Shown: positions 46,977-48,969 of the stretch, piece after piece | Layout of the letters: each line of letters starts with the position of its first letter | Position numbering within the stretch: position 1 is the stretch's first letter | Position numbers and translations under genes: made by a program | Notes under the pieces: generated by a model | Seen by the model: the letters and a program-made list of their open reading frames with translations, nothing else | Database searches by the model: none | Told to the model about the DNA's origin: nothing | Origin: Oscillospiraceae bacterium | GTDB taxonomy: Bacteria > Bacillota > Clostridia > Oscillospirales > Acutalibacteraceae | Assembly: GCA_015066205.1 (NCBI GenBank) | Contig: SVOV01000003.1 | Span: forward strand, 48,461-112,460 | Reading direction: 5' to 3' | Length of the DNA stretch: 64,000 bases

Positions 46977-47543
46977 ATGGAAGATAAACAAATAATAGAG
47001 CTTTTCTTTGCGAGAGCAGAAGAAGCAATTCAAGTTTTAAAGGAGCGTTTCGGTAACACCTTATACAGAATCGCTAAAAACATTCTCGGGAATCATCACG
47101 ATGCAGAAGAAACAACAAATGATACATATCTTGCCATTTGGAATGCAATTCCGCCTAAAGAGCCTGAGCCTTTGGCTCCTTATGTATACCGAACAGGACG
47201 AAATATGGCATTGAAACGGTTAGAGTATCTTTCAGCAGAAAAACGAAACAGCAGATATGACTTGTCCTTGGATGAGCTCGGAGCTTGCCTGCCGGATGAT
47301 AACAACGACCCCGAGCAGACTTTGATAGTTCAGGAAATTGCTGATTCGATAAATGAGTTTCTGGAAAAAGACACAGCTCTCAACAGATACATTTTTATTC
47401 GCAGATATTGGTATGGGGATGCTGTCGAAGATATAGCAAAATCCGTCAACATGAAAAACGGTGCCGTTTCGGTACGGTTAAACCGTATCAGAACCAAATT
47501 AAAAGAACATCTTATTAAGGAGGGTTATTACTATGAAGCGTAA
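46977..47543 (+). CDS. ECF-type RNA polymerase sigma factor
   Basis: GAGAGGAGG SD; LFFARAEEAIQVLKERFGNTLYRIAKNILGNHHDAEETTNDTYLAIWNAIPP...IFIRRYWYGDAVEDIAKSVNMKNGAVSVRLNRIRTKLKEHL. Confidence 0.94.
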   Translation: MEDKQIIELFFARAEEAIQVLKERFGNTLYRIAKNILGNHHDAEETTNDTYLAIWNAIPPKEPEPLAPYVYRTGRNMALKRLEYLSAEKRNSRYDLSLDELGACLPDDNNDPEQTLIVQEIADSINEFLEKDTALNRYIFIRRYWYGDAVEDIAKSVNMKNGAVSVRLNRIRTKLKEHLIKEGYYYEA

Positions 47544-48969
47544 GCAAGTATTGGAAGTTTTGGATAAAATAGACGAAAGCTTTATAACGGAAGCTGAAAA
47601 AGCTCCGAAGAGAATTAAAAAAAGACCGTATTGGATAGGTGTGGTTGCCGCTGTCTTAGCAGTTGTGATCTGCATAAGCTCTTTCTTCAATACACCCGTA
47701 ATTACAGCAAATGCCGTTGCTCTTCCGGGAGATGCACGAATTATGGAGTATCCTCATTATGACGATTATGAGGACAGAGAAAGCTATATGGCAGACCGTG
47801 CTGTATGGGAAAATGAATCGGAAAACAGAAGAACAACAAGAAAAAATGCCGCCGTTTCTCTGTTGCCGTTTTTTACCAAGAGCTCGGCTGAATTCCTCAT
47901 ATCGCCGAACAATGAGAATGCCTTATGGTCACCCATAAATGCATATATCGGACTTTCTATGCTTGCAGAAATAACAGACGGTGACAGCAGAAAAGAAATT
48001 TTAGATTTATTCGGTGTAAGTGATATTGAAACACTCCGTAGTCAAGTTAGTGCTGTTTGGGAATCCGTTTATGAGGATGACAGAAATGAAATATCCACAT
48101 TGGCTAATTCTCTTTGGCTTGAAGACGGACTTGAGTATAATCAGGATGCTATGAATAACCTTGCATATCACTATTATGCTTCCGTGTATCAGACTGACCT
48201 TGGCAGTAACAGTGCGAACAGATCAATCGGCGGTTGGCTTGATAAAAACACAGGCGGAATGTTAAAGGACAGTACAGACAAAATTGATCTGTCACCCGAT
48301 ACTGTTCTTGCTCTCTATTCAACAATTTTCTTCCAGGCAAAATGGAGCGATGAGTTTAACAGCAAAAACAATACTAACGATATTTTTCACGGAGCTGACG
48401 GCGACACCAATGTCACTTATATGAACAAAAAGCTTTGTCAGATGAATTATTATTGGCATAGAGATTTCAGTGCAGTAGCCTTAAGTCTTAAAAACGGCAG
48501 TACAATGTGGTTTATTCTTCCCGACGAAGGAAAAACACCTGCTGATGTGTTAAGTGGCGGTGCTTACGGAGAAATGATTTCTTTGGGAGATGGTGAAGAC
48601 GGATGGGAAAATAAAAAATATATGAAGGTCAATTTGACCGTACCGAAGTTTGATGTTTCCTCTTCCGTAAACTTAAAAGACGGACTCGGCAAAATGGGAG
48701 TTACAAAAGTATTTGATATAGAGAACTCCGATTTTTCAGCAATCACCTCCGATACCCCCGTGTATATTTCAGCTGTTAATCAATCCGTAAGAGTTGAAAT
48801 TGATGAAAAAGGCGTAAAGGCGGCAGCCTATATAGAAATTCCCGGTGCAGGTGCGGCACAGCCTCCTGAAGAGATAACAGATTTTGTTCTCGACAGACCC
48901 TTTGTGTTTATGATTTCAAAAGGTAATTTACCTCTCTTTACGGGTGTTGTAAATAATATATATGGTTAA
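47533..48969 (+). CDS. Membrane-anchored serpin with anti-sigma-like N-terminus
   Basis: N-term MKRKQVLEVLDKIDESFITEAEKAPKRIKKRPYWIGVVAAVLAVVICISSFF; serpin body ...WSPINAYIGLSMLAEITDG...NSLWLEDG...ALYSTIFFQAKWSDEFN...VRVEIDEKGVKAAAYIEIPGAGAAQPPEEITDFVLDRPFVFMISKGNLPLFTGVVNNI. Confidence 0.92.
   Translation: MKRKQVLEVLDKIDESFITEAEKAPKRIKKRPYWIGVVAAVLAVVICISSFFNTPVITANAVALPGDARIMEYPHYDDYEDRESYMADRAVWENESENRRTTRKNAAVSLLPFFTKSSAEFLISPNNENALWSPINAYIGLSMLAEITDGDSRKEILDLFGVSDIETLRSQVSAVWESVYEDDRNEISTLANSLWLEDGLEYNQDAMNNLAYHYYASVYQTDLGSNSANRSIGGWLDKNTGGMLKDSTDKIDLSPDTVLALYSTIFFQAKWSDEFNSKNNTNDIFHGADGDTNVTYMNKKLCQMNYYWHRDFSAVALSLKNGSTMWFILPDEGKTPADVLSGGAYGEMISLGDGEDGWENKKYMKVNLTVPKFDVSSSVNLKDGLGKMGVTKVFDIENSDFSAITSDTPVYISAVNQSVRVEIDEKGVKAAAYIEIPGAGAAQPPEEITDFVLDRPFVFMISKGNLPLFTGVVNNIYG

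What the first reader, a model, noticed from the sequence alone, without database searches (positions are those of the whole stretch)
46977..48969. ECF sigma factor paired with a membrane-anchored serpin that has an anti-sigma-like N-terminus
The sigma gene (46977-47543) overlaps the next ORF, whose N-terminus (MKRKQVLEVLDKIDESFITEAEKAPKRIKKRPYWIGVVAAVLAVVICISSFF) looks like the cytosolic and TM part of anti-sigma proteins in these bacteria, while the extracytoplasmic part is a full serpin with a hinge and reactive loop (EKGVKAAAYIEIPGAGAAQPPEEITDFVLDRPFVF). A protease-trap fold fused to a sigma regulator suggests a sensor in which cleavage of the reactive loop by a host or competitor protease could change sigma release. 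I am not aware of this being characterised.
Basis: partly seen in the sequence, partly recalled or inferred. Interest (0 to 1): 0.85.

Follow-up and report, generated by a model that had tools for sequence, protein, structure and literature searches.

The report
Serpin-tipped membrane anti-sigma factor
In many gut Clostridia, a gene-switch protein (sigma factor) sits next to a membrane protein whose inner end looks like that switch's lock and whose outer part is a protease trap (serpin); these bacteria probably use the trap to feel attacking proteases, a use of serpins we found described nowhere.

Summary
An ECF sigma gene (46977-47543) overlaps by 11 nt a 478-aa protein with a ~32-aa cytosolic N-terminus, one TM helix and a complete serpin. 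It is not a one-off. The same genome holds a second sigma-serpin pair. In named GTDB genomes 64 of 78 untruncated serpin relatives overlap a sigma gene by 4-14 nt, in Oscillospiraceae, Lachnospiraceae and others.

Four results support "the serpin protein is the sigma's anti-sigma factor". (1) The same N-terminal module, with non-serpin ectodomains, follows paralogous sigmas in the genome. (2) Where the serpin in a sigma operon is a lipoprotein, a separate TM anti-sigma-like ORF is present. (3) Sigma divergence tracks serpin residues 1-24, but not the TM or the serpin domain. (4) An ECF-type promoter precedes most sigma-serpin operons and some stand-alone secreted serpin genes. Sigma-serpin fusion arose at least twice (AU p = 3e-6).

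The loop has canonical inhibitory length and a conserved small-residue hinge, so a protease-triggered switch is plausible but unproven. No held paper reports it. Protease sensing, the site-1 cut and sigma binding are inferences. Verdict: a new, widespread variant of ECF sigma/anti-sigma signalling with a protease-trap ectodomain.

The parts
46925..46962 (+). ECF-type promoter: -35 TGTAAG (46925-46930), 16-nt spacer, -10 region CGGTTTATATAAGTGA (46947-46962)
   Evidence: block identical in close orthologues; motif of the same layout upstream of 70 of 90 sigma-serpin operons; the only match in the genome with up to 3 mismatches
46977..47543 (+). ECF sigma factor (188 aa)
   Evidence: Pfam Sigma70_r2, NCBIfam TIGR02937; 5 matches incl. 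itself in the genome
47533..47628 (+). cytosolic N-terminal module (residues 1-32), candidate sigma-binding domain, two short predicted helices
   Evidence: module HMM also hits non-serpin proteins behind paralogous sigmas; residues 1-24 coevolve with sigma; helices 3-11 and 15-21 at low confidence
47629..47688 (+). single transmembrane helix (residues 33-52), preceded by KRIKKR
   Evidence: hydropathy, AF2 helix 33-51
47707..47754 (+). conserved juxtamembrane segment ANAVALPGDARIMEYP (residues 59-74), predicted beta strand 60-63 next to the serpin fold; contains AxA
   Evidence: A59, A61, A63, R69, P74 near-invariant in 121 orthologues; strand in the window model and in L060
47905..48957 (+). 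serpin domain (residues 125-475)
   Evidence: PF00079, PDB sequence and fold matches to alpha-1-antitrypsin and tengpin
48805..48867 (+). hinge and reactive centre loop P17-P4' (EKGVKAAAYIEIPGAGA|AQPP), predicted P1-P1' = Ala441-Ala442
   Evidence: same register and P3'-P4' PP as alpha-1-antitrypsin (read from the sequence); hinge near-invariant, P1 Ser/Ala in orthologues

Best explanation
A two-gene ECF signalling unit. The serpin protein is the membrane-spanning anti-sigma factor of the adjacent sigma: its cytosolic residues ~1-32 hold the sigma, one TM helix anchors it, and the serpin outside is the sensor. Proposed mechanism: an extracellular serine protease with small-residue specificity cuts the reactive loop (predicted Ala441-Ala442). 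The serpin undergoes its stressed-to-relaxed change and traps the protease. The N-terminal strand (residues 59-74) leaves the serpin body, the juxtamembrane segment becomes open to a site-1 cut (a signal peptidase at AxA, or the protease itself), a site-2 metalloprotease cuts the TM, and the sigma is freed. The sigma then transcribes its own operon from the conserved ECF promoter, and in some species secreted lipoprotein serpins, so that more protease inhibitor is made. Shown here by sequence: the architecture, the recurrence, the shared module, the coevolution, the promoter. Inferred: sigma binding, protease inhibition, strand release, the cuts, sigma release.
For: Overlapping pair in the window and a second pair in the same genome. 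Overlap in 64 of 78 untruncated named loci and 25 of 30 order-level loci fetched. The N-terminal HMM built only from serpin proteins hits the non-serpin ORFs behind three paralogous sigmas at E 4e-10, 5e-10 and 3e-6. Sigma distance correlates with residues 1-24 (partial Spearman given serpin 0.44-0.56, 0 of 499 permutations) but not with the TM (0.02-0.03) or 24-column serpin blocks (mean 0.02, max 0.21). Operons with a lipoprotein serpin carry a separate TM anti-sigma-like ORF. Independent fusions: AU p 2.9e-6. Promoter above the 99th percentile of shuffles in 70 of 90 operons, and before stand-alone serpins L072, L116, L117. Hinge P15-P8 conserved; P8, P10, P12, P14 small or beta-branched. 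Site-2 protease homologue present. Precedents: RsiV, an anti-sigma whose ligand exposes a signal peptidase site (PMC6066255); tengpin, whose N-terminal tail holds the native serpin state (PMC8233489); B. breve serpin, induced by protease through a two-component system (PMC8012564).
Against: No experiment. P14 is Val/Cys rather than the Thr of the lipoprotein serpins, and P9 is Tyr/Phe, so inhibitory activity is not assured. Some members have about 40-90 disordered residues between TM and serpin, so rigid coupling or a signal-peptidase cut at the conserved AxA cannot be general. The AxA/YP segment is kept in lipoprotein relatives without the anti-sigma module, so it serves the serpin fold at least in part. 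AF2 confidence for residues 1-32 is low.
Confidence: 0.62

Rival explanations
2. The serpin is a non-inhibitory ligand-binding ectodomain (like hormone-carrying serpins); a small molecule or polymer is sensed.
For: Unusual conserved P14 Val/Cys and P9 Tyr/Phe. Reactive-loop P2 Gly and P3'-P4' Pro are invariant in close orthologues, so the loop is not evolving as a fast arms race.
Against: Hinge small residues and canonical loop length are kept; P1 varies among Ser/Ala/Glu as in inhibitors.
Confidence: 0.1
3. Plain operon neighbours: the TM segment is only an anchor and the sigma merely transcribes the serpin gene.
For: Overlapping genes are common in operons (general knowledge).
Against: Module shared with non-serpin proteins behind paralogous sigmas; residue 1-24 coevolution with the sigma but not of the TM; no third gene within 120 nt in 45 of 58 loci, so no other obvious adjacent anti-sigma gene.
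Confidence: 0.05

Closest known systems
RsiV/sigma-V of Bacillus subtilis (ECF30, DUF4179; PMC6066255, PMC5014341)
   Same: ECF sigma with a single-TM anti-sigma factor whose ectodomain binds an attacking host enzyme (lysozyme), leading to signal peptidase and site-2 cuts
   Different: Ectodomain is a serpin, not the lysozyme-binding fold; DUF4179 matches only 1 of 22 members and below cut-off; the sensed enzyme class would be proteases
RsiP/sigma-P of Bacillus thuringiensis (PMC8844934)
   Same: Signal-peptidase-initiated proteolysis of an anti-sigma factor without DUF4179
   Different: Senses beta-lactams through PbpP (PMC8092216); no serpin
Group T bacterial serpins: tengpin, siropins, miropin, B. 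longum serpin (PMC8233489, PMC5127057)
   Same: Serpin fold; tengpin has an N-terminal tail near s1A that stabilises the native state; siropins are from a gut Clostridium (Eubacterium siraeum) and inhibit neutrophil elastase and proteinase 3
   Different: Described as free inhibitors; none reported as part of a sigma/anti-sigma unit
B. breve serpin operon with protease-inducible two-component system (reported in PMC8012564)
   Same: Serpin production raised by protease
   Different: Separate two-component system; here sensor candidate, anti-sigma factor and inhibitor are one protein
RsgI-type anti-sigma factors of clostridia (own knowledge)
   Same: Anti-sigma factors with exchangeable sensory ectodomains, one per sigma
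   Different: SigI-type sigma and carbohydrate-binding modules; no RsgI_N match here

Membership tests
Serpin (PF00079) | Family profile match over the whole domain | tested here: met
   E 2.9e-66, residues 125-475, 224.6 bits against cut-off 27
Serpin (PF00079) | Serpin fold | tested here: met
   AF2 model mean pLDDT 79; Foldseek top hits all serpins, e.g. 2pef E 1.5e-28, TM 0.82 by target length
Serpin (PF00079) | Inhibitory hinge and reactive-loop length | tested here: met
   P15 Gly, P12-P10 Ala/Thr/Ser, same P15-P4' length and PP as alpha-1-antitrypsin; P14 Val deviates
Serpin (PF00079) | Protease inhibition | not testable with these tools
   needs assay
ECF sigma factor | Regions 2 and 4 only, about 190 aa | tested here: met
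   TIGR02937 71 bits over cut-off 42.9; Sigma70_r2 over cut-off, region 4 models below Pfam cut-off
ECF sigma factor | ECF-type promoter before its own operon | tested here: met
   TGTAAG-16-CGG... conserved; 70 of 90 operons above the 99th percentile of shuffles
Membrane anti-sigma factor | Encoded with the sigma; single TM, N-terminus in | tested here: met
   11-nt overlap, TM 33-52 after KRIKKR
Membrane anti-sigma factor | Cytosolic domain specific for its sigma | tested here: met
   coevolution of residues 1-24 with sigma only; indirect
Membrane anti-sigma factor | Binds and inhibits the sigma | not testable with these tools
   two-hybrid or transcription assay needed
RsiV/ECF30 (DUF4179) | DUF4179 over cut-off | tested here: not met
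   17.6 bits against 30.1 in the window protein, 1 of 22 members at all
Class I zinc anti-sigma domain | HXXXCXXC in the cytosolic part | tested here: not met
   no Cys in residues 1-32 (sequence); no such Pfam match
RsgI | RsgI_N domain | tested here: not met
   no match in 22 members

The most novel reading that the evidence does not exclude
Probability: 0.33. Interest if true: 0.92.

Novelty: new variant of a known kind. Interest (0 to 1): 0.78.

Why it matters
The role of bacterial serpins is called enigmatic in the main serpin phylogeny (PMC8233489). Here a large, conserved group of them is physically part of a transcription switch, which gives a testable role: feeling proteases and ordering more inhibitor. 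It would extend the RsiV principle (an anti-sigma factor as receptor for a host enzyme) from lysozyme to proteases in common gut Clostridia, and offers a natural protease-activated reporter design.

Tried and rejected
DUF4179/RsiV membership: a weak hit at residues 29-81 in the window protein is not shared by its relatives. The AxA motif as a general signal-peptidase site: rejected as a general rule, because lipoprotein relatives without the module keep the segment and some members have it far from the TM; still possible in the window's own clade, where it lies about 9 residues after the TM. Coincidental overlap: rejected. Lineage-wide serpin-sigma linkage: rejected, since lipoprotein serpins of other clades mostly lack an adjacent sigma. 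A mirror-tree test on undereplicated loci gave r = 0.72 but only 0.10 among distant pairs; it was driven by near relatives and is not used. The full-size AU test did not finish, so the test rests on a 30-row subset. No coordinates are given for models, so the docking partner of strand 60-63 could not be read.

Full report
WHAT IS THERE. The sigma ORF (46977-47543, 188 aa) and the serpin ORF (47533-48969, 478 aa) overlap by 11 nt. The sigma is a two-domain ECF factor (TIGR02937 8e-20). The serpin protein has a basic ~32-residue N-terminus, one TM helix (33-52), a short linker, a conserved segment ANAVALPGDARIMEYP and a full serpin (PF00079 2.9e-66). AF2 with 58 sequences gives mean pLDDT 79; Foldseek hits are serpins throughout.

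NOT A ONE-OFF. The same genome has a second serpin, also overlapped by an ECF sigma gene. In 301 genomes of the family, 101 have a serpin. Among 106 serpin ORFs whose surroundings I read, 23 share the window's architecture with overlaps of 4-14 nt, and two more carry the N-terminal module at the edge of a contig. At order level, 25 of the 30 loci fetched for the best profile matches overlap a sigma gene. In named GTDB genomes 64 loci overlap, 14 do not and 5 are truncated; two of the 14 have the module with the sigma 23-39 nt away under my start choice. Carriers include Oscillospiraceae and Lachnospiraceae MAGs, many from ruminant and other animal guts, and the isolate Cuneatibacter sp. NSJ-177 (L165). 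These samples are ranked by similarity to the query, so the fractions describe this serpin clade, not bacterial serpins at large.

ORIGIN. In a serpin tree all window-type proteins fall in one 36-row group (SH-aLRT 97), the rest of that group being members without the module or without an overlapping sigma. Three further fusions (L003, L008, L019) have other N-termini and other ECF sigmas; forcing them together with the main group is rejected (AU p 2.9e-6, 30-row subset). L173, L184 and L202 carry a third N-terminal type with yet another sigma class. So serpins were joined to anti-sigma modules repeatedly. In six relatives the operon is instead sigma - separate TM protein - lipoprotein serpin (L006, L009, L024, L025, L028, L034), the unfused counterpart.

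WHY ANTI-SIGMA. (a) An HMM of the first 62 residues, built from serpin proteins only, finds the ORFs that follow three paralogous sigmas of this genome (E 4e-10, 5e-10, 3e-6); these have the same module and TM but unrelated ectodomains without Pfam match. (b) On 59 dereplicated pairs, sigma distances correlate with distances of residues 1-24 (partial Spearman 0.56; 0.44 after removing three outliers; 0 of 499 permutations) but not with the TM (0.02-0.03) nor with 24-column serpin blocks (mean 0.02, max 0.21). TM and serpin are on the same polypeptide and serve as the control. (c) 45 of 58 loci have no third gene within 120 nt.

PROMOTER. Close orthologues share an unbroken block upstream of the sigma. 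Across 90 operons the motif TGTRAC-N16/17-CGWCTNTATAGGTGAAAGG exceeds the 99th percentile of dinucleotide shuffles in 70 (63 of 82 not used to build the motif; related loci inflate this). The window site is at 46925-46962 and is unique in the genome at up to 3 mismatches. Three stand-alone lipoprotein serpins (L072, L116, L117) have the motif with scores 15.7-21.1 against a shuffle maximum of 10.4; L116 and L117 are from one genus. The L072 genome also holds three fused pairs. Secreted serpins are therefore candidate targets; autoregulation is inferred.

LOOP. Counting from hinge Gly427 (P15), the loop GVKAAAYIEIPGAGA|AQPP matches alpha-1-antitrypsin in length, with PP at P3'-P4'. In 121 orthologues P15-P11, P9 and P7 are invariant or nearly so, and P1 is Ser 73, Ala 42, Glu 6. 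The clade consensus DEEG[VC]xAA[AS][YF]T differs from GTKAGAVT of lipoprotein serpins. This suits an inhibitor of elastase- or subtilisin-like proteases, but P14 Val/Cys and P9 Tyr/Phe leave doubt.

MECHANISM. RsiV is held safe from signal peptidase by its juxtamembrane segment until lysozyme binds (PMC6066255). Tengpin's N-terminal tail docks near s1A and keeps the native serpin state (PMC8233489, PMC12702362). In the window model and in L060, whose linker is 88 residues of pLDDT under 50, the conserved segment forms a strand next to the serpin. I propose that loop cleavage and insertion release this strand and start proteolysis; a site-2 protease homologue is encoded. Against a universal signal-peptidase cut: relatives anchored as lipoproteins keep the segment, and long linkers place it far from the membrane. 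A simpler variant is that trapped or exhausted serpin leaves the linker open to the attacking protease.

LITERATURE. One paper in the held library has serpin, sigma factor, anti-sigma and ECF together and is unrelated by its title and abstract; further searches found none. The serpin phylogeny does not contain the word sigma. Protease-induced serpin production is known in B. breve through a two-component system. The main ECF classification paper is not held, so a mention there cannot be excluded.

Noticed in passing
L072, L116, L117: Stand-alone lipoprotein serpin genes without an adjacent sigma carry the same ECF-type promoter, so they may be targets of these sigmas.
   Followed up: partly
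L173, L184, L202: Serpins fused to a different anti-sigma module (RYKKANEGIHAPDELKRKVI-like) next to a different ECF sigma class.
   Followed up: partly
L003, L008, L019: Independent sigma-serpin fusions with serpins of other clades.
   Followed up: yes
L097 (same genome, contig C15): An Xre-type HTH domain fused to sigma region 4 without an evident region 2, followed by a protein with the same N-terminal module.
   Followed up: no
L085 (G036:C18): Apparent decayed pair: the start of a sigma gene runs in frame into the C-terminal part of a serpin.
   Followed up: no
window 46720-46850: Direct and inverted copies of a sequence like AATCAGGGGACGGTTCTG just upstream of the operon, possibly a mobile-element remnant.
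   Followed up: no
window 42038-46183 (-): 1381-aa protein with YD/RHS-type repeats, divergent from the sigma-serpin operon.
   Followed up: no
window 50847-54749 (+): 1300-aa secreted surface-type protein with leucine-rich and repeated segments.
   Followed up: no
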